IMG/VR virus record: IMGVR_UViG_3300036715_001865 | Location: 124,001 to 188,000 of that record | Source of the DNA: a virus | Reading direction: 5' to 3' (one strand) | DNA: 64,000 nt | Part shown: positions 1,609 to 58,184 of the stretch, one piece after another | Layout of the letters: each line of letters opens with the position of its first letter | Position numbering within the stretch: position 1 is the stretch's first letter | Translations under genes and position numbers: made by a program | Notes under the pieces: model-generated | The model's input: the letters and a program-made list of their open reading frames with translations, nothing else | The model's database searches: none | Told to the model about the DNA's origin: nothing

Positions 1609-3513
1609 TTATTCTATAATAGTTGTGAGCCACGCTTTTCTTAAATCGGCATTTTTACCAAATAACAATTCCATTACCTCTTTCATTTTGCCATCATCCA
1701 CAAACGGTATGACTGATTTCTCGATGTCTCCTAGTATCATTTCCCAATCTACTTTTGACATACTACCCAAACCTTTCATGTATGTAATTTCCCAACCCTT
1801 GTACTTGGTTTTTACTTTTTCATAATCAGATTGTGTTGTAAAATGTATTCTTTTTCCACCCTTTGAAGCAACAACGTTTGGTGCAACTAATCTATAAAAG
1901 ATAGGAGGGCAGTTTGGGTCAAATAATTCAGGCCAAAATTTAAAAAACAAACAAGCAAGTAGTGTAAAAATATCGTCACCATCTCTATCAGCATCTGTTG
2001 CAGGGATAATATATCCATAGTTTAACTTACTTCTATCAGCAGGTTTTCCTGGTGTAAGACCTATTACTGCTAATAACTCTGTAATTTTGCCCATCTTCAA
2101 TGCTTGAGCTGGTGTACAATCCCACACATTGTTGATCTTCCCTGTCAATGCGAATGCTGCAATTGTGTTTGGGTCTCTTGCTTCTGATATTTGAGATTTT
2201 GCTGACAACCCTTCCGTAATTAACAGTCTACATAGTTTGCGGTCAGTGCTAGTAGCATCCAACAATCCATCAACTTTAATGCGTTTGCGTAGTTGTTTTT
2301 CATGAGCGCCAATAGCTTTTGAATTTTCATTAAGGTGATGTCGGTCATTAGCTCGAGCTAACACCTCTTCTAACCAAACATTGGTTGTTTTTGCAAACGT
2401 TTTCCAACTAGAATCCACAGCACTTGTGAATTCTTTTCTCATATCAGGACCAGTTAATCTAGTCTTTGATTGACTGTCATACTCAGGGTTTTTAACCTTC
2501 AAATTAGCCAACACCAACAACCCTTTTCGAATATCATTTCTGGTAATTTCAGCTTTTAATTTTTTAGCTTCTTTTAATAAATGATTTCCTACTCTATCAA
2601 ATAGAACATTGAAAAATTGTGTGTTACACTTTCCACCATCAAATAACAATGAACTATTGACCCAAGTAAACATTTGCTCATCAATCCCATCATGGCCATT
2701 GCATATAATATAAATATCCCCGTGAACATTTTCATCATTTACACTAAAAGTAAAAGTATCTTTTCCTACTGCAATCCTATCAATATACTCTTGTACACCT
2801 CGTTTATAACGAAACTTTTCTCCATTGTATTCAACACTTATATTTGGATTTGTCATCGCAATTTCAACTGCTCTATTGCGAATTAAATTGTCCGGTAGTG
2901 ATATATCCGAAAACACCAACGGATCTAGTTGAAAGCTTAATTCTGTTCCTGTGGTCTTTGCAACCAACTCAGTAATTTTAGGCCTTGATGCTTTATTTGC
3001 ACCATCAACAAATTTCTGGTAGTATTTTTTATTGTCTCGATGTATGGTAATATCTAATTCAGAGCAACAAAAGTTTGTACAAGCTGCGCCCACTCCATTC
3101 ATACCCTGGACACCTATTTGCTTATCTTCAGTAAAGTTTCTACCCGAACGTAATGAACTAAACACTACTTCTGGAGTAAATTTCCCAGAACTATGCTTAT
3201 CAATAGGTACACCTCGACCATTATCACCAATTGTGTATTTTCCTGTTTCAGGTGATGCTTGAATTTTCAACAACTTAACCTTGGAAGAAATCTGGGCAAA
3301 TTCATCCAAACTATTATCAACGATTTCACCGAATGCCTTATACACCGCTGGTATAAATGTAACATCTTCAATTTGTAATACTGGGCTAGATAACAATGGT
3401 ATAGAAAATGTGGTTGGATTGCCACTACCGAAGTATACAGGGTTGCGTAATCTAACATGCTCTCTATCGGTTAATATTTTTATATCTTCTGATGTATATG
3501 TTTTTTCTTTCAT
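1609..3513 (-). CDS. Type II DNA topoisomerase large (ATPase/TOPRIM) subunit
   Basis: A 634-residue GyrB/T4 gp39-like subunit. The GHKL ATPase motifs are E63xVDN67 (EIVDNSLDE), D97xGxG (IGDNGRGVP) and the ATP-lid glycines GVQGMNGVG at 134-142. A TOPRIM domain follows, with ITEGLSAKS near 435 and the acidic DADRDGDD cluster near 505. In T4 these functions are split between gp39 and gp60; here they are in one uninterrupted reading frame. It works with the A-type subunit encoded at the window edge. Start ATG at 3513 follows the 78-residue gene by 14 bp. Confidence 0.92.
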   Translation of the reverse strand: MKEKTYTSEDIKILTDREHVRLRNPVYFGSGNPTTFSIPLLSSPVLQIEDVTFIPAVYKAFGEIVDNSLDEFAQISSKVKLLKIQASPETGKYTIGDNGRGVPIDKHSSGKFTPEVVFSSLRSGRNFTEDKQIGVQGMNGVGAACTNFCCSELDITIHRDNKKYYQKFVDGANKASRPKITELVAKTTGTELSFQLDPLVFSDISLPDNLIRNRAVEIAMTNPNISVEYNGEKFRYKRGVQEYIDRIAVGKDTFTFSVNDENVHGDIYIICNGHDGIDEQMFTWVNSSLLFDGGKCNTQFFNVLFDRVGNHLLKEAKKLKAEITRNDIRKGLLVLANLKVKNPEYDSQSKTRLTGPDMRKEFTSAVDSSWKTFAKTTNVWLEEVLARANDRHHLNENSKAIGAHEKQLRKRIKVDGLLDATSTDRKLCRLLITEGLSAKSQISEARDPNTIAAFALTGKINNVWDCTPAQALKMGKITELLAVIGLTPGKPADRSKLNYGYIIPATDADRDGDDIFTLLACLFFKFWPELFDPNCPPIFYRLVAPNVVASKGGKRIHFTTQSDYEKVKTKYKGWEITYMKGLGSMSKVDWEMILGDIEKSVIPFVDDGKMKEVMELLFGKNADLRKAWLTTIIE

Positions 3514-3527
3514 CTAGTTTTATTCTC

Positions 3528-3764
3528 CTAATTGCGGGAAGTGGCTTGTTGAGCTGCTATTAGCCTCTCAACATCATCCATTGCAAAATTTAAAGCACTT
3601 AATAATTGCAATACTGTTTGCCCAGCAGGCATCTGCCGGAGTATATTAAGTTTATCCAGAATTAAACCTTGTTGAGTACCAAGTTGTGTAACATTCATAG
3701 TATCCCACAAATCTGTTCTTATATTAACTTCCCAATCTTCTTTTTTTATTTGTTCATATTCCAT
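3528..3764 (-). CDS. Small hypothetical protein
   Basis: A 78-residue acidic protein (MEYEQIKKEDWEV...) wedged between primase and topoisomerase with gaps of 2 and 14 bp, so it is clearly part of the operon. The second half is predicted helical (LLSALNFAMDDVERLIAAQQ). I recognise no family. Confidence 0.65.
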   Translation of the reverse strand: MEYEQIKKEDWEVNIRTDLWDTMNVTQLGTQQGLILDKLNILRQMPAGQTVLQLLSALNFAMDDVERLIAAQQATSRN

Positions 3765-3766
3765 TA

Positions 3767-4798
3767 TTATGTTCCTTTTTCACAATATAAATTTATTACT
3801 ACCTTGGCTAAATTACCCGAAACAGTATTCTGCATAATGGTACGTAATGTGTATAATAATCCATGCTTTCGAATAGAATCATTAACATCTTTGCAATCGT
3901 CACTTTTATCTAATGTACTTATACTCCACCCCAAGTCAATTGCTTGTTCAGCTAAAATATGCCCTGACCCATACCTATCCGGTATTACTACTTTAGGTCT
4001 TCGAGATTTGTTTAACCACGTGATTTGGGATTTTGTTAATTTGTTGCCAAAAATTGCGACTCCTGATAATGCAGATGCATCAAACCAACCTTCTACAACA
4101 TATAATGGATCCGTGTTGTACCCTTGTATTTGATCATACCCATACATTACATTATCCCTAGCTACTGATGCACTCAAATATTTCTTTTGGTGCAAATCTG
4201 TTAAATCCCTACCTTGATAGAATATTAATTTGTTGTCTTTATATATTGGAATGATTAGTCGTCCGTACCATCTGGCATTAAGAACATGCTGTTGGTGCTT
4301 TACACAATGAAATGGATAAGTTTTCCAATCGATCCCTCTGTTGGCTAAGTATTCAATAGAATACTGACACCAATCATCATCGGGATCATCCACTAATGGA
4401 TAAAAGAAAGGTAGTAACGGGATTTCATCCGGCTCAATAGATTGATAAACAGATACAGCTTTAGAATATTCACCTGTAAGGGCGTCGAGAGTTAGTTTCC
4501 CCCAATCCACCTTAAGGATACCAAATGATTCAAATACTTCCACCATATTTTTTGATGGATTTTTATTTTCAGTTGGCTCATATACTGCAACATGTCCACA
4601 ATTAAAACAATTATATGTTCCACCATGTTCTGTAAACACAAATGCAGCTCGTTTACCTTTTTTACCATGGTCATTGCATACCTTACACAATACAGGATAC
4701 CATCCCTTAGCACTTGGAGGGTCTAAGTGTATATGTTGAGTGATTATTTGTTCAAATAGATTATTAGAAGAATCAACTGTTGACGGCTTCCTATCCAT
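3767..4798 (-). CDS. DNA primase (zinc-finger plus TOPRIM), gp61-like
   Basis: A 343-residue primase that would make RNA primers for lagging-strand synthesis with a helicase not in this window. An N-terminal zinc ribbon is formed by C38xxC41 and C64xxC67 (CKVC, CFNC). The TOPRIM core begins at YVVEGWFDA near residue 230 with its conserved Glu, and continues to VVIPDRYGSG with the metal-binding Asp. Size and two-part layout match T4 gp61 and the N-terminal halves of bacterial DnaG; no C-terminal helicase-binding domain is visible. Its own sigma70-like promoter lies just upstream. Confidence 0.85.
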   Translation of the reverse strand: MDRKPSTVDSSNNLFEQIITQHIHLDPPSAKGWYPVLCKVCNDHGKKGKRAAFVFTEHGGTYNCFNCGHVAVYEPTENKNPSKNMVEVFESFGILKVDWGKLTLDALTGEYSKAVSVYQSIEPDEIPLLPFFYPLVDDPDDDWCQYSIEYLANRGIDWKTYPFHCVKHQQHVLNARWYGRLIIPIYKDNKLIFYQGRDLTDLHQKKYLSASVARDNVMYGYDQIQGYNTDPLYVVEGWFDASALSGVAIFGNKLTKSQITWLNKSRRPKVVIPDRYGSGHILAEQAIDLGWSISTLDKSDDCKDVNDSIRKHGLLYTLRTIMQNTVSGNLAKVVINLYCEKGT

Positions 4799-5829: not shown

Positions 5830-5837
5830 TATTTATC
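5830..5837 (-). promoter_or_regulatory. Late-type promoter box GATAAATA
   Basis: GATAAATA reading on the minus strand, 13-20 nt before the ATG of the HELTH gene. It matches the T4 late consensus TATAAATA at 7 of 8 positions. Confidence 0.5.
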
Positions 5838-5840
5838 ACC

Positions 5841-5870
5841 CACAAACAAAAAACCACCCGAAGGTGGTTT
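5841..5870 (-). terminator. Rho-independent terminator after tmRNA
   Basis: A perfect 8-bp stem AAACCACC/GGTGGTTT with loop TTCG, followed on the minus strand by a T-rich tract. It closes the tmRNA transcript. Confidence 0.85.
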
Positions 5871-6140
5871 ATGTGAAGGTGTTTCTGTTTCCAAGTGTAC
5901 CTCCAATACTCATACCTACTTAGTTGCCTAAGCGGCTAGTGCATAATTTTCTGAATTTGCAGTTATATTTTTTATGCCATTAGATATTACTATCCAGAAG
6001 GTCATCTCTCTAGTTGCCGATCAAACTTATTCTACCCCAATCGATACCATGACATCCCCATAATTAGTTATTTGTGGAGATGGTGGGAGTCGAACCCACG
6101 TCTTGAAGCCTTTAATTTGATAGGAATTACAACCATTCAA
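5871..6140 (-). ncRNA. ssrA: Circularly permuted tmRNA (ssrA)
   Basis: Transfer-messenger RNA for ribosome rescue, read on the minus strand, with the acceptor piece encoded before the coding piece. The acceptor piece contains a T-arm (GTGGG-TTCGACT-CCCAC, 6099-6083) and the 3' acceptor strand CATCTCC (6082-6076). After a 16-nt linker beginning at the discriminator A (6075-6060), the coding piece starts GGGGATG (6059-6053), which pairs with CATCTCC over all 7 positions with one G-U. The next segment TCATGGTATCGATTGGG resembles the tmRNA D-loop region. A second inter-piece helix is visible: TTTGATCGG (6025-6017) with CCTATCAAA (6124-6116), 8 of 9 paired. The tag frame encodes ANSENYALAA then TAG. 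CCA is not encoded. Permuted tmRNAs are known in alpha- and some beta-proteobacteria and cyanobacteria; a phage copy is unusual. Confidence 0.9.
5928..5960 (-). other. tmRNA proteolysis-tag reading frame (ANSENYALAA)
   Basis: GCA resume codon at 5960-5958, ten sense codons, and TAG at 5930-5928. The peptide ANSENYALAA matches the E. coli tag ANDENYALAA at 9 of 10 residues and ends in the ALAA degron recognised by ClpXP, so a functional tag is expected. Confidence 0.9.
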
Positions 6141-6146
6141 CTTTTG

Positions 6147-6154
6147 TATTTATA
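6147..6154 (-). promoter_or_regulatory. Late promoter TATAAATA upstream of tmRNA
   Basis: An exact T4-late consensus TATAAATA on the minus strand. It overlaps the stop codon of the upstream 117-residue gene and lies about 6-8 nt before the likely tmRNA 5' end, so the tmRNA is probably a late transcript. Confidence 0.65.
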
Positions 6155-6503
6155 CTATTCGAGTTTTATGTGCCTTAATATACTCATTTGTGAAATACTT
6201 TACTCTACCATCTACCATTTCACACAAGGTAGTAGGATGTATTCCCGAACCTACTGCAATAGTAAATTGAATATCAACCAATTGCTCATCGATATCATCA
6301 GTGGGCCGAACATAATCCATACCGGATACAAATATCCTATAAGCTTCAGTGGCTAAATTATATGCCAATTGATCTATAGCAATTTTTGTTTGGTTGGCAT
6401 CAATAGCTTGAATGGTACCATCTTTGATAATTTCTGTACACAATTCTTCCCAAGATTGTAACTCTTGATTGCTAATTTTAGTTGGTGTAGATGTATTGTT
6501 CAT
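6150..6503 (-). CDS. Hypothetical protein
   Basis: A 117-residue protein starting MNNTSTPTKISNQELQSW. It overlaps the 3' end of the 2H phosphoesterase gene by 4 bp (ATGA), implying translational coupling. A helical mid-region is followed by VGSGIHPTTLCEMVDGRVKY. No family recognised. Its stop codon is embedded in the tmRNA late promoter. Confidence 0.65.
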   Translation of the reverse strand: MNNTSTPTKISNQELQSWEELCTEIIKDGTIQAIDANQTKIAIDQLAYNLATEAYRIFVSGMDYVRPTDDIDEQLVDIQFTIAVGSGIHPTTLCEMVDGRVKYFTNEYIKAHKTRIV

Positions 6504-10416: not shown

Positions 10417-11280
10417 CTATACTGCTACGGTAGCTTTAATTGTAGGGTGACTTTCATAACCAATGATTTCGAAATCTTCAAATTTAAAATCATCAATATC
10501 ATTAATCGACCTATTAAACATAAATTTTGGTGATTTAAATGGAGTTCGAGATAACTGTTCAATACATTGATCTACGTGGTTTTCGTAGATATGAACATTA
10601 CCACCATTCCAAATCAATTCACCAGGGTTTAAACCGGTTACTTCTGCTAACATTCTCAACAATAATGAATACTGTACAACATTGAATGGAACACCCAAAA
10701 ATACATCACAGCTACGTTGATTTAATATCATTGAAAGTTCACCATCCACAACATTACACTGAAACGAATAATGACATGGGGGCAATTTCATATTTGACAA
10801 ATCACCAACATTCCATGCAGTTACAATCATTCTTCTATCTGTTGGATTGTGTAACAACTTATCAATCAAAATAGCAATTTGGTCAATCTCATACGACTTA
10901 AAAATAGGAGCACCATGTATCTCACTACTTTGAACATCCAGTTCATGAGTTAACCACCTTCTCCACTGGTATCCGTACACTGGCCCCAACTCTCCATGTT
11001 CATCTGCCCATTCGTCCCAAATACGAACATTATGGTCTTGTAAATATTTAATGTTGGTGCTACCAGTCAAGTACCATAACAATTCACGAACAATTGATCT
11101 GATGTGCATATGTTTTGTGGTCAATAGTGGAATACTACCATCTCTCAAATCAAAACACATTTGAGGACCAAAAATACTTTTGGTTCGAATTCCTGTTCTA
11201 TTTTGACTCCAAGTACCTTCAGTTAATACTCGTTGTACGAGGTGTAAATATTCCTTATCGTGAAACGATATTTCTTCCAT
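10417..11280 (-). CDS. thyA: Thymidylate synthase (ThyA)
   Basis: A 287-residue ThyA converting dUMP and methylene-tetrahydrofolate to dTMP and dihydrofolate. Cys169 in KLPPCHYSFQ is the catalytic nucleophile. RSCDVFLGVPFNVVQYSLL and the C-terminal TVAV complete the signature. DHFR, in the following operon, recycles its dihydrofolate product. Full length and intact. Confidence 0.96.
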   Translation of the reverse strand: MEEISFHDKEYLHLVQRVLTEGTWSQNRTGIRTKSIFGPQMCFDLRDGSIPLLTTKHMHIRSIVRELLWYLTGSTNIKYLQDHNVRIWDEWADEHGELGPVYGYQWRRWLTHELDVQSSEIHGAPIFKSYEIDQIAILIDKLLHNPTDRRMIVTAWNVGDLSNMKLPPCHYSFQCNVVDGELSMILNQRSCDVFLGVPFNVVQYSLLLRMLAEVTGLNPGELIWNGGNVHIYENHVDQCIEQLSRTPFKSPKFMFNRSINDIDDFKFEDFEIIGYESHPTIKATVAV

Positions 11281-11292
11281 GAAATCTCCTTT

Positions 11293-11475
11293 TTATTGTT
11301 CAACTACATACAGATCACTATCTCTAACCCATTTCTTCCATGACCCAACCATTCTATCTGATGGGGTGATTTCATACAAGGTGTCGATTTTTTTACTTGC
11401 TAATTCTTTAGCGGCCTTTTTTCCAGTTTTAATAACTTCCACCCCTTCGTATACGTATACAGGCTTATCATCCAT
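11293..11475 (-). CDS. Small hypothetical protein
   Basis: A 60-residue protein (MDDKPVYVYEGVEVIKTGKK) between thyA and the Thg1-like gene with gaps of about 12 bp. A compact two-strand/helix composition ends in VRDSDLYVVEQ. Unassigned. Confidence 0.6.
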   Translation of the reverse strand: MDDKPVYVYEGVEVIKTGKKAAKELASKKIDTLYEITPSDRMVGSWKKWVRDSDLYVVEQ

Positions 11476-11487
11476 CTAATTTTTTCC

Positions 11488-12240
11488 TTATGTTAAATAT
11501 TGTTCGATATAGTCCCGATCTTGTGTAAAAATCGGGATATTACGTTCTATTCCTTTTGTTTGTCGATCGCCACCTAGCCGCGTGGTATAGCAACTTCCTC
11601 TTTTTTTCCAGGTATGTAGATTGTTCCAATTTACACATTTTTCCAACATCAACATATCTTGCACCTGGCTTGTGTTTTTCTTATGCAATTGGTTATGACT
11701 GAAGTGGTGTTGTCCCAACATGTTTATTGAATTTCTTGTTGCATCCTGTTGTCTCCATACAAAATAATTGGCCACTTCAGACATGGGTACGTTAAATACT
11801 CTACTGTCAAATAATGCAAAATTTGCTGGAGTATATGGGATGTCTGGGAACAATTGTCCAATGTGGAAATTGAAATTAGCAGTTGCGATTGCTGCTGATA
11901 CTGATACAGTTTTCTGAATATTGCCACCGTACCAAGGGTCTGTTGTTAGTTTATCCCAATCACACAACAATATTGAAATTTCATCTGATTGTGTATACCC
12001 AAATTTAGCATTTTGAATTTGTGAACCTAATGCTTCCATAGTGAGACACATCGCTGTATGTAATTTTTCACTAAATGGATCATTGATCATACTAGGATCA
12101 TTTTCTTTGTTGATTTTTCTGGTATATGTATGGAACGCTTTACCATCTAACCTAATAATGGTAGCAGATCTACCTAAAAGAGAAGACTGAGTGGTCTTCT
12201 CATATTTCTTCATTCTGTCGCCCAATGTGTCCTTTGACAT
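11488..12240 (-). CDS. Thg1-like 3'-5' nucleotidyltransferase
   Basis: A 250-residue member of the Thg1 family, which adds nucleotides to the 5' end of tRNAs: G-1 on tRNA-His in Thg1, and templated repair of 5'-truncated or mismatched tRNAs in Thg1-like proteins. The metal-binding RLDGKAFHTYTR (D32) and YTQSDEISILL (D86, E87) motifs are clear, as are the later RQQDATRNSINM and LHxKNT segments (CNWNNLHTWKKRGSCY). The phage encodes a tRNA-His and several tRNAs with imperfect acceptor stems, which are candidate substrates. Which activity it has cannot be read from sequence. Confidence 0.88.
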   Translation of the reverse strand: MSKDTLGDRMKKYEKTTQSSLLGRSATIIRLDGKAFHTYTRKINKENDPSMINDPFSEKLHTAMCLTMEALGSQIQNAKFGYTQSDEISILLCDWDKLTTDPWYGGNIQKTVSVSAAIATANFNFHIGQLFPDIPYTPANFALFDSRVFNVPMSEVANYFVWRQQDATRNSINMLGQHHFSHNQLHKKNTSQVQDMLMLEKCVNWNNLHTWKKRGSCYTTRLGGDRQTKGIERNIPIFTQDRDYIEQYLT

Positions 12241-34241: not shown

Positions 34242-34273
34242 TACTTCTCCTACTAATACTATTGAGGTTATTT

Positions 34274-35404
34274 ATGAATATAACAAACACAGAATACCAA
34301 ACCATGTTAAAAATTTGTCAGGATGGCACTTTTTATTTTAATGACCAGTCTATAGGAGCTAACTTATTCAGAATGTTTAATTATAGATTGGCTAGTTATA
34401 CAGATTGGTTAGTTGACCCTATCACGTTTGAGATGCGTGGATTGATGGTAGAGATTGATAGTAATGGGGAATTTTTACGAGTTGCATCTAGGCCACCAGC
34501 TAAATTCTTTAATCTAAATGAAACCCCATTTGTGCAAAATGTTGATTTGTCTGTTGGTGGTGTTGTCAATGATAAGTTGGATGGCTCTCTAATGAGTACG
34601 TTTTGGTACATGGATATAAATGGAGTTATCCAACTTGGGGTGAAATCCAAAATGTCTTTGATTTCAGACCAGTGTGTACAAACAACAGAGTATCTCCAAC
34701 AACATCCAATATTGAGACAAGAATTGTTGGATTTAGCCCGTAAAGGATTTACAGTATATTGTGAAATTTGTGGTCCAGATAACCGTATTGTTGTTGGATA
34801 CCAAGAGCGAAAGCTAACAGCATTGGGCATTCGTGATAATATAACTGGGGAAGAATTACCTCCAACAACATCCTCTATATTATCAAATGGTCATTGGGTC
34901 AATCATTTTTATTCAGATGATATAGCAAGTGTTGTATCAGGGATAGATGATTTGGTGGGAATTGAGGGGTATGTAATACAGTTAAATAGTGGAATTCGAT
35001 TCAAAATTAAATCTAACTGGTATCTATCTTTGCATCACTGTAAAGATTCGGTGAATAACCCTCGTAGACTATTTGAGGCTATTGTTGATGAAGGTGTGGA
35101 TGACATCCGTAGTATGTTTCATGATGATGCTTGGTTAATCAATCAAATTGATGAAATGCAAGTAACAGTGGATAAATTGTACAATGATATGGTTTCTGAA
35201 GTGGAACACTTTTATGAAGTGCATAAAGATTTAGACCGGAAAACTTATGCTATTTTGGGGCAAGAATTAGTTACCAAGATGTATTTTTGTTTAGTTATGG
35301 TAAAATATGCCGGTAAAATTCCAGACTATAAAACGTTCCTCAAATCAAAATACAAAGAGTTGGGATTTGTGGATAAGGCTATCAAAGAAACAGTTGAAGA
35401 ATGA
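34274..35404 (+). CDS. T4 Rnl1-like RNA ligase
   Basis: 376 residues from the ATG at 34274, which has GAGG upstream; a start 12 nt earlier is less likely. Lys101 in VNDKLDGSLMS is the adenylated lysine, at nearly the same position as K99 of T4 RnlA. EMRGLMVEI, VYCEICGPDNRIVV and GYVIQLNSGIRFKIK (motifs IIIa-V) follow, then a helical C-terminal domain. Rnl1 seals broken anticodon loops of tRNA after host PrrC cleavage. Here it is also a candidate joiner of the split tRNA halves at 57.8-58.1 kb. Confidence 0.9.
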   Translation: MNITNTEYQTMLKICQDGTFYFNDQSIGANLFRMFNYRLASYTDWLVDPITFEMRGLMVEIDSNGEFLRVASRPPAKFFNLNETPFVQNVDLSVGGVVNDKLDGSLMSTFWYMDINGVIQLGVKSKMSLISDQCVQTTEYLQQHPILRQELLDLARKGFTVYCEICGPDNRIVVGYQERKLTALGIRDNITGEELPPTTSSILSNGHWVNHFYSDDIASVVSGIDDLVGIEGYVIQLNSGIRFKIKSNWYLSLHHCKDSVNNPRRLFEAIVDEGVDDIRSMFHDDAWLINQIDEMQVTVDKLYNDMVSEVEHFYEVHKDLDRKTYAILGQELVTKMYFCLVMVKYAGKIPDYKTFLKSKYKELGFVDKAIKETVEE

Positions 35405-57001: not shown

Positions 57002-57775
57002 ATGGCACATAAAACAAAATTGCATGAGATTCTTGCAGTAGAATCAGGTAAAGAAGGTTACTTCAAATCAGCATTGGTTGAAATGACCAATTTATTCAAA
57101 AACAAAGCAAACCATTTTAATGGATTCAATAAAAATTTGACTCTATTTGGTGATGAAACTCCAGAAAAAATTGCAAAAGAAAAAGCGGCTGCTGAATCAC
57201 AGGCATTAACTGCAACTGTGGAATCTGAACTTGCTTATTTGGCTGAAGTGGTTTCTTCTTATGTTGACGTTTTCTATCAAAAAGATGATGCCAATCAACG
57301 TGCTGTTGCAGACATCATTGTAAATGGTGTAGTTATTGCAACTGGCATCCCAGCAACAACTTTGTTGGGCCTGGAAAACAAATTGAAACAGTTGCGTCCG
57401 ATTTATGATCAGATTCCAACGTTACAACCAGGAACAAACTGGGAATTGAATCCAGCGCTGGGTAAAGGTGTTTATATTGATAGAGACCAACAAGTTCGAA
57501 CCACCACCAGAAAAGGTTTTGCATTTAAAGAAATTTCGCCTGCTACTGAGAAGTTTCCAGCTCAGATCGAGCGTTGGGAAACAGTAGATGACATCGGGTA
57601 TACTACTTTGACTCGTTGGACTGGTATGATTTCAGTTGCAGAAAAAGTTGATTTGTTAAAACGTTTTGATGCAGTAATGCACGCGGTTAAACAAGCTCGT
57701 CAACGTGCAAATGAAGTTGAAGTTCACAATGTCAATTTGGGTAAAGTATTAATGGAAGCCATTAACGGCTTCTAA
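57002..57775 (+). CDS. Conserved hypothetical protein (DUF7873-like)
   Basis: 257 residues: MAHKTKLHEILAVESGKEGY, a helical middle, and a C-terminal signature (WETVDDIGYTTLTRWTGMIS ... ANEVEVHNVNLGKVLMEAI) that I associate with a family shared by large phages and some bacteria. Function unknown. Regular codon use and a strong promoter suggest an abundant protein. It directly precedes the permuted tRNA genes and may share their transcript. Confidence 0.65.
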   Translation: MAHKTKLHEILAVESGKEGYFKSALVEMTNLFKNKANHFNGFNKNLTLFGDETPEKIAKEKAAAESQALTATVESELAYLAEVVSSYVDVFYQKDDANQRAVADIIVNGVVIATGIPATTLLGLENKLKQLRPIYDQIPTLQPGTNWELNPALGKGVYIDRDQQVRTTTRKGFAFKEISPATEKFPAQIERWETVDDIGYTTLTRWTGMISVAEKVDLLKRFDAVMHAVKQARQRANEVEVHNVNLGKVLMEAINGF

Positions 57776-57824
57776 CAAGTTTGAGATAAGTTTATCGTCA
57801 ATATTATCGTTAAAGTTATAGATT

Positions 57825-57926
57825 GATAATCTGGTAGAAATACCAACTGGAGGTTCGATTCCTCCCTGGCCCACGAAGAAACAAATATGGGTCGGTGCCG
57901 GAATGTGGTATACGGGGATTGTTCAA
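57825..57926 (+). tRNA. Circularly permuted tRNA-Leu(CAA), 3' half first
   Basis: The 3' half (57825-57873) comes first: GA, anticodon-stem strand TAATC (57827-57831), variable arm TGGTA-GAAA-TACCA, T-arm GGAGG-TTCGATT-CCTCC (57849-57865), acceptor strand CTGGCCC (57866-57872), discriminator A. A 15-nt linker (57874-57888) leads to the 5' half: acceptor GGGTCGG (57889-57895; all 7 pair with CTGGCCC, two by G-U), Leu-type D-arm CCG/CGG with TGG in the loop, anticodon strand GATTG (57917-57921) and loop TTCAA with anticodon CAA. GATTG pairs with TAATC. Flanks TTGAGATAA (57781-57789) and TTGTCTCAA (57940-57948) also pair. The break is in the anticodon loop. No conventional partner half exists on either side. 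Confidence 0.85.
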
Positions 57927-57990
57927 TTGTTTTATCGTATTGTCTCAACAAGTTTATTAGATGGATAATAGTAGTAAGCAACACAAGAAT

Positions 57991-58089
57991 AATTTTGAAT
58001 GCTATGGGTTCGAGTCCCATTCTGTGCACTAACCAAACAAAGCTATAATTATGCACCGGTAGGTCAATGGTAGACCGTCAAATTTTTAT
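57991..58089 (+). tRNA. Circularly permuted tRNA-Lys(TTT), 3' half first
   Basis: The 3' half comes first: anticodon-stem strand TTTGA (57994-57998), 5-nt variable loop ATGCT, T-arm ATGGG-TTCGAGT-CCCAT (58004-58020), acceptor strand TCTGTGC (58021-58027), discriminator A. A 24-nt linker (58029-58052) leads to the 5' half: acceptor GCACCGG (58053-58059, 6 of 7 paired), T8 A9, perfect D-arm GGTC-AATGGTA-GACC, G26, TCAAA (58078-58082) pairing perfectly with TTTGA, and anticodon TTT (58085-58087) after T33. Flanks ACACAA (57981-57986) and TTGTGT (58099-58104) pair. Lys is not covered by any ordinary tRNA found in this window. Confidence 0.85.
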
Positions 58090-58153
58090 CTTCCCTTATT
58101 GTGTAAGACTGAAAGTATTAACGCCCATCAAATCCAATTATAGGATAATTATT

Positions 58154-58184
58154 AAACCGCCGGTTAGGTTAAACCGGCGGTTTT
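58154..58184 (+). terminator. Rho-independent terminator ending the tRNA cluster
   Basis: AAACCGCCGGTT and its exact complement (12 bp) with a 6-nt loop, followed by TTTT. Confidence 0.93.

What the first reader, a model, noticed from the sequence alone, without database searches (positions are those of the whole stretch)
57873..58052. Shared linker motif in all three permuted RNAs
The linkers between 3' acceptor end and 5' acceptor start begin AC in all three. Two are very similar just before the 5' G: TAATTAT (tmRNA, 6066-6060 minus; tRNA-Lys, 58046-58052). The Leu linker ends AAATAT, and all contain ACAAA-like runs. Unrelated RNAs sharing this suggests a common processing route (RNase P plus a 3' nuclease) or a common permutation mechanism.
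Basis: seen in the sequence. Interest (0 to 1): 0.7.

Follow-up and report, generated by a model that had tools for sequence, protein, structure and literature searches.

The report
tRNA-mimic RNAs paired with DUF7873
The "shared linker" is just ordinary tRNA-type end sequence, but the two RNAs it joins belong to an apparently undescribed family of tRNA-shaped RNAs, encoded back to front beside one uncharacterised protein gene in many phages and some bacteria.

Summary
The linkers read as stated: all three begin AC, and the tmRNA and "Lys" linkers share TAATTAT before the 5' G. This is not a special signal. All 17 ordinary phage tRNAs checked have C74 and an AT-rich trailer, and 15 of 18 leaders end in T. 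The 7-base identity has about 1% chance for any of three pairs, judged after the fact.

The "permuted tRNA-Leu/-Lys" are probably not split tRNA genes. They have a T arm, acceptor strand, linker, acceptor strand and D arm on a stem: the layout of YrlA Y RNAs and permuted tmRNA. They lie directly behind a DUF7873 gene. Of 91 other DUF7873 loci (phages, viral contigs, plasmid records), 87 have such an RNA within about 560 nt downstream; matches elsewhere are rare. Helices covary strongly. Most linkers (56 of 70) start N-CCA; lengths run from 7 to over 110 nt. Flanks pair into a longer stem where an anticodon loop would be.

Best reading: a DUF7873-linked tRNA-mimic RNA whose linker is probably removed by RNase P and 3' processing, leaving a two-piece, CCA-ended RNA. 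Protein binding, cleavage and function are inferred. No Ro60 gene was found on the contig.

The parts
57002..57775 (+). DUF7873 (PF25283) gene, 257 aa, first gene of the proposed operon
   Evidence: Pfam E 3.6e-59; same gene precedes such RNAs in 87 of 91 other loci
57827..57921 (+). RNA 1 ('Leu-like'): stem strand 57827-57831, long variable arm 57832-57848, T arm 57849-57865, acceptor 3' strand 57866-57872, linker, acceptor 5' strand 57889-57895, D arm, stem strand 57917-57921; a longer closing stem from about 57781 to 57946 in the predicted fold
   Evidence: scanner 25.8; R1 model 37.5 bits for 57840-57911; minimum-energy fold (z only -0.93)
57873..57888 (+). linker of RNA 1
   Evidence: sequence; trailer plus leader type
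57994..58082 (+). RNA 2 ('Lys-like'): T arm 58004-58020, acceptor 3' strand 58021-58027, linker, acceptor 5' strand 58053-58059, D arm, closing stem 57994-57998 with 58078-58082
   Evidence: scanner 26.6; R1 47.6 bits, E 1.7e-10; YrlA RF02553 33.9 bits over 57974-58109, below the gathering score 69
58028..58052 (+). linker of RNA 2
   Evidence: sequence
58154..58184 (+). terminator-like hairpin with T run closing the proposed operon
   Evidence: read in the sequence; not tested further
6060..6075 (-). linker (intervening sequence) of the permuted tmRNA at 5928-6134
   Evidence: RF04321 115.6 bits; sequence

Best explanation
The two RNAs are members of a family of circularly permuted tRNA-like RNAs encoded in an operon with DUF7873. 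Each has, 5' to 3': one strand of an extended stem, the T arm, the 3' acceptor strand, a linker, the 5' acceptor strand, the D arm, and the return strand of the stem. Shown here: the permuted order, covarying helices, linkage to DUF7873, N-CCA at the start of most linkers, and flank pairing where an anticodon loop would be. Inferred: RNase P cuts before the 5' acceptor strand and 3' processing (with CCA addition where CCA is not encoded, as in this phage) removes the linker, leaving a two-piece, CCA-ended tRNA mimic held by its helices, as in permuted tmRNA. Also inferred: DUF7873 binds it. Having no anticodon loop, it more likely acts as a tRNA mimic (decoy, tether or regulator of tRNA-handling enzymes or nucleases) than as a decoding tRNA. 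The shared linker features are ordinary trailer and leader sequence of this genome.
For: An element lies within 900 nt downstream of DUF7873 in 67 of 91 loci by scanner, with 3 hits elsewhere in those loci; with covariance model R1 the tally is 87 of 91; 12 of 27 cellular loci. 95% of pair cells are standard pairs and the covariation score is 0.924 against 0.224 in shuffles. R1 matches the window RNAs, which were not in the model. Linkers start N-CCA in 56 of 70, against 91 of 154 ordinary tRNAs of the same loci. Linker length varies from 7 to 80 nt in the viral set and beyond 110 nt in others. Own-flank pairing is -22.4 against -14.2 kcal/mol for swapped flanks, z -18.4. No TROVE gene in this contig or in two other carriers.
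Against: No RNA ends, no binding and no function were measured. Elements for the model were pre-selected for pairing, so covariation is inflated. The window's own lower stem is weak (ranks 6 and 40 of 65 swaps) and plain folding does not recover RNA 2. Seven of 65 linkers form a hairpin that pairs CCA with UGG, which may hinder RNase P. Fifteen of 27 cellular DUF7873 loci gave no clear R1 match.
Confidence: 0.6

Rival explanations
1. They are ordinary YrlA Y RNAs that work with a Ro60 (Rsr) protein of the host or of an unsequenced part of the phage; the linker is the uncut loop of the acceptor-like hairpin, and DUF7873 is only a neighbour.
For: YrlA model aligns over its full length at 33.9 bits, and 35.6 bits in L096; similar RNAs sit beside a TROVE gene in Rhizobium phage Y65.
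Against: All fall well under YrlA's gathering score of 69. No TROVE in this contig, TM16 or KpLz-2_45. N-CCA and highly variable linkers are not in the short YrlA loop of the model. Linkage to DUF7873 is strong.
Confidence: 0.2
2. They are true permuted tRNA genes (Leu, Lys) whose anticodon-loop ends are trimmed and sealed by the phage's T4-type RNA ligase, giving decoding tRNAs.
For: ARAGORN accepts rejoined halves, including Leu and Lys anticodons; the phage encodes an Rnl1-type ligase and Thg1.
Against: Rejoined halves pass at many joins with many anticodons; in the family the flanks pair beyond the anticodon stem, leaving no loop to join; Rnl1 is common in phages without this locus (1704 records).
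Confidence: 0.12
3. The linkers carry a dedicated conserved processing or permutation signal shared by tmRNA and the two RNAs.
For: TAATTAT is identical in two linkers; 22 of 65 homologous linkers end TAT.
Against: Ordinary tRNAs of the phage have the same C74 and T-ending AT-rich leaders. Homologous linkers are otherwise unlike in length and sequence.
Confidence: 0.05
4. They are decayed remnants of tandem tRNAs with no function.
For: Both lie in a tRNA-rich region and fall below tRNA cut-offs.
Against: Strong two-sided covariation and the same gene order in unrelated phages.
Confidence: 0.03

Closest known systems
YrlA bacterial Y RNA (Rfam RF02553; partner Ro60/Rsr)
   Same: T arm, acceptor-like hairpin and D arm in this order on top of a long stem; tRNA mimic (PMC8394870)
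   Different: Score under the gathering threshold; partner gene is DUF7873, with no TROVE found in three carriers; linkers mostly N-CCA and of very variable length
Permuted two-piece tmRNA (Rfam RF04321)
   Same: 3' acceptor strand, intervening sequence, 5' acceptor strand in one transcript; the intervening sequence is cut out by tRNA enzymes (PMC11915505); one lies in this same phage
   Different: No tag-coding part or tmRNA pseudoknots apparent; intact D arm; stem in place of the mRNA-like part; linked to DUF7873
Circularly permuted tRNA genes of red algae and some archaea
   Same: 3' half precedes 5' half in the gene, with a linker at the acceptor end
   Different: Those are spliced by an endonuclease and ligase to decoding tRNAs (own knowledge); no anticodon loop is evident here

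Membership tests
YrlA Y RNA (RF02553) | Profile match over the curated cut-off | tested here: not met
   33.9 bits against 69
YrlA Y RNA (RF02553) | tRNA-like module with T arm, acceptor-like hairpin and D arm in permuted order | tested here: met
YrlA Y RNA (RF02553) | Ro60/Rsr (TROVE) partner encoded nearby | tested here: not met
   No PF05731 in the 190 kb contig; the contig may be incomplete and the host is unknown
YrlA Y RNA (RF02553) | Ro60-binding stem with conserved motif | tested here: inconclusive
   A lower stem exists in the family but is weak in the window; its loop motif T[TC]AG differs between subgroups
Permuted tmRNA (RF04321) | Tag reading frame and match over cut-off | tested here: not met
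   57849-57904 reaches 16 bits against 47; no tag found; the real tmRNA is at 5928-6134
Permuted tRNA gene | Joined halves give one tRNA with a defined anticodon | tested here: inconclusive
   Many joins and anticodons pass
Permuted tRNA gene | Mature ligated tRNA in vivo | not testable with these tools
   needs RNA from infected cells
DUF7873 (PF25283) | Profile match over the gathering score | tested here: met
   200.9 bits against 27, residues 5-254

The most novel reading that the evidence does not exclude
DUF7873 and its permuted, CCA-carrying tRNA-like RNA form an undescribed ribonucleoprotein, spread over phages of Rhizobium, Vibrio, Klebsiella, Arthrobacter, Gordonia and Rhodococcus hosts, Streptomyces and Nonomuraea replicons and Bacteroidota assemblies, whose RNA matures by tRNA enzymes into a two-piece tRNA mimic.
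Probability: 0.5. Interest if true: 0.82.

Novelty: new variant of a known kind. Interest (0 to 1): 0.7.

Why it matters
If right, tRNA mimicry by permuted RNAs is not confined to Ro60-bound Y RNAs and tmRNA. A widespread protein family of unknown function (DUF7873) gains an RNA partner and a testable role, and these RNAs are missed by the standard tRNA search and by Rfam at its own thresholds. The retained CCA makes specific predictions about tRNA enzymes (RNase P, CCA-adding enzyme, perhaps synthetases or anticodon nucleases) acting on them during phage infection.

Tried and rejected
Close relatives of the locus by DNA: none in INPHARED beyond chance-level tRNA fragments and none by exact pattern in IMG/VR. 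The single-protein search of IMG/VR found none; the alignment search found 205 relatives, of which 80 were kept. RtcB absent. A group I intron in permuted form was considered because the break lies at the anticodon stem; rejected because the flanks are short and the Rfam scan shows none. Structure search of DUF7873: no Foldseek match at E <= 0.001 in PDB or BFVD; VIA-align best Z 5.6, within the range seen for unrelated folds; no PDB sequence relative. PADLOC has no DUF7873 match. Papers: no hit for DUF7873 and, judging by titles and abstracts in the held library, no permuted tRNA described in phages. The main YrlA papers (Chen 2014; Sim and Wolin 2018; Wang 2018) are not held, so what they say about phage YrlA was not read.

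Full report
Observation. The three linkers are at the stated places and read as described. The tmRNA is a genuine permuted tmRNA (RF04321, 115.6 bits). The other two RNAs are not called by ARAGORN or by Rfam at its cut-offs, but a scanner for permuted tRNA shape (T arm, acceptor strand, linker, complementary acceptor strand, D arm, closing stem) ranks them first and second of all hits in the window, with scores 26.6 and 25.8 against at most 21.3 in six shuffled windows.

Is the linker motif special? Ordinary tRNAs of the same phage have C at position 74 in 17 of 17 cases, A-rich trailers, and leaders that end in T in 15 of 18. 'AC' is therefore discriminator A plus C74, and the T-rich end is the usual leader. 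The 7-base identity TAATTAT has probability 0.0029 per pair under the leader profile (0.0085 for any of three), chosen after the fact. It needs no special signal.

What the RNAs are. Rfam in E-value mode aligns the Lys-like RNA over the full length of YrlA, the bacterial Y RNA that carries a tRNA-like module (33.9 bits, E 1.6e-5, gathering 69). Rhizobium phage RHph_Y65, found through the neighbouring DUF7873 protein, has similar RNAs in an unannotated block just before a TROVE (Ro60) gene. In four phages (this one, Y65, TM16, Klebsiella KpLz-2_45) there is also such an RNA directly behind the DUF7873 gene. No TROVE gene was found in this contig, TM16 or KpLz-2_45.

Test of the DUF7873 linkage. 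I fetched 91 further DUF7873 loci: 11 from phage and plasmid records and 80 from IMG/VR. The scanner found an element within 900 nt downstream on the same strand in 67, and only 3 hits elsewhere in those loci. A covariance model, R1, built from 26 of them reaches 46 bits or more within about 560 nt downstream in 83; four more (L049, L050, L052, L109) pass by the scanner, giving 87 of 91 (my tally from the tables). Some of the 91 are near-identical copies (for example L117-L120, L133-L135), so the number of independent cases is smaller. The remaining four are L054 (none), L094 (about 1.6 kb away), L105 (contig ends) and L137 (21.9 bits). R1 matches the window's two RNAs with 47.6 and 37.5 bits although neither was used to build it. 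In 27 loci from cellular assemblies, mostly Bacteroidota, 12 have matches of 44 bits or more downstream. R1 also cross-reacts with tandem ordinary tRNAs, usually below about 45 bits but once at 56.5 (L132). None of the permuted elements in 20 of these loci is recognised by Rfam at its thresholds.

Covariation and architecture. In 26 aligned elements 95% of pair cells are standard, the covariation score is 0.924 (0.224 in shuffles, 0.07-0.18 when slid) and 19 of 21 pairs change on both sides. The scanner selects for pairing, so these values are inflated, but shuffled sequence gives no hits of such scores. Below the 'anticodon' stem, the flanks of each element pair with each other far better than swapped flanks do (-22.4 against -14.2 kcal/mol, z -18.4, 65 elements), starting after an asymmetric internal loop whose 3' side often carries T[TC]AG. 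This is a Y-RNA-like stem and not an open anticodon loop. For the two window RNAs this stem is weak and RNA 2 is not recovered by plain folding, so for them the stem rests mainly on family membership.

The linker in the family. It begins N-CCA in 53 of 65 elements and 56 of 70 with cellular loci added, compared with CCA in 91 of 154 ordinary tRNAs of the same loci. It runs from 7 to 80 nt in the viral set, with cases of 123 nt (L150) and about 115 nt (L147). A CCA kept at the right place, a leader-like end and a tolerated insertion suggest a segment that is cut out, as in permuted tmRNA (PMC11915505). A minority (7 of 65) are hairpins pairing CCA with UGG, so not all need be processed alike. 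Window linkers have C74 but no full CCA, like most of the phage's other tRNAs.

Operon. In the window the order is DUF7873, RNA 1, RNA 2, terminator-like hairpin. The seven actinobacterial phage and plasmid loci also have two RNAs about 150 nt apart. In 28 of 72 cases an ordinary tRNA follows within 400 nt, mostly 40-63 nt away.

DUF7873. AlphaFold2 gives a confident model (pLDDT 89.8, pTM 0.82) with no convincing relative in PDB or BFVD, which does not prove a new fold. No held paper mentions it.

Mechanism. Most likely the RNA is transcribed with DUF7873, its linker is removed by RNase P and 3' processing, and DUF7873 binds the resulting two-piece tRNA mimic. Lacking an anticodon loop it would act on tRNA-handling proteins, for instance as a decoy; the same suggestion has been made for YrlA against an anticodon nuclease (PMC7790460). 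Cleavage, binding and function are inference. The alternative of a spliced, decoding tRNA is raised by the phage's T4 Rnl1-type ligase and Thg1, but Rnl1 is common in phages and no unique anticodon emerges.

Novelty. The shape is known from YrlA and permuted tmRNA; the DUF7873 pairing, the N-CCA linkers and the spread were not found in the literature I could search. The primary YrlA papers were not available, so earlier notice of some of these RNAs cannot be excluded.

Noticed in passing
L017 (MN988525) 10950-12120: Unannotated block before the TROVE gene of Rhizobium phage Y65 with about seven units, each closed by a 7-bp helix (for example CCTAACG...CGTTAGG) with TTGCGA and ATCT next to it; at least three carry permuted tRNA-like modules, and one has the normal D-to-T order.
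   Followed up: partly
L147 1394-1571; L150 3514-3700; L160 about 3550-3830: Bacteroidota DUF7873 loci with permuted elements whose linkers exceed 110 nt (L160 only seen by eye).
   Followed up: partly
L123 about 3150-3222; L074 2981-3055; L084 2990-3061: Ordinary-order tRNAs directly behind permuted elements, some with odd anticodon loops (TTA 'stop' anticodon in L123, unassigned in L074 and L084).
   Followed up: no
window 11488-12240 (-): Phage Thg1 (tRNA-His guanylyltransferase), PF04446 5.9e-26 and phrog_4717.
   Followed up: no
window 34262-35404 (+): T4 Rnl1-type RNA ligase with the C-terminal tRNA-specificity domain (PF20819).
   Followed up: partly
window 5837-6164 (-): Permuted tmRNA of betaproteobacterial type with tag ANSENYALAA, a hint at the host group.
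   Followed up: no
L020 6020-6090 (Vibrio phage phiKT1024): YrlA-like permuted element in a very stable fold (z -5.5) with the TROVE gene about 20 kb away.
   Followed up: partly
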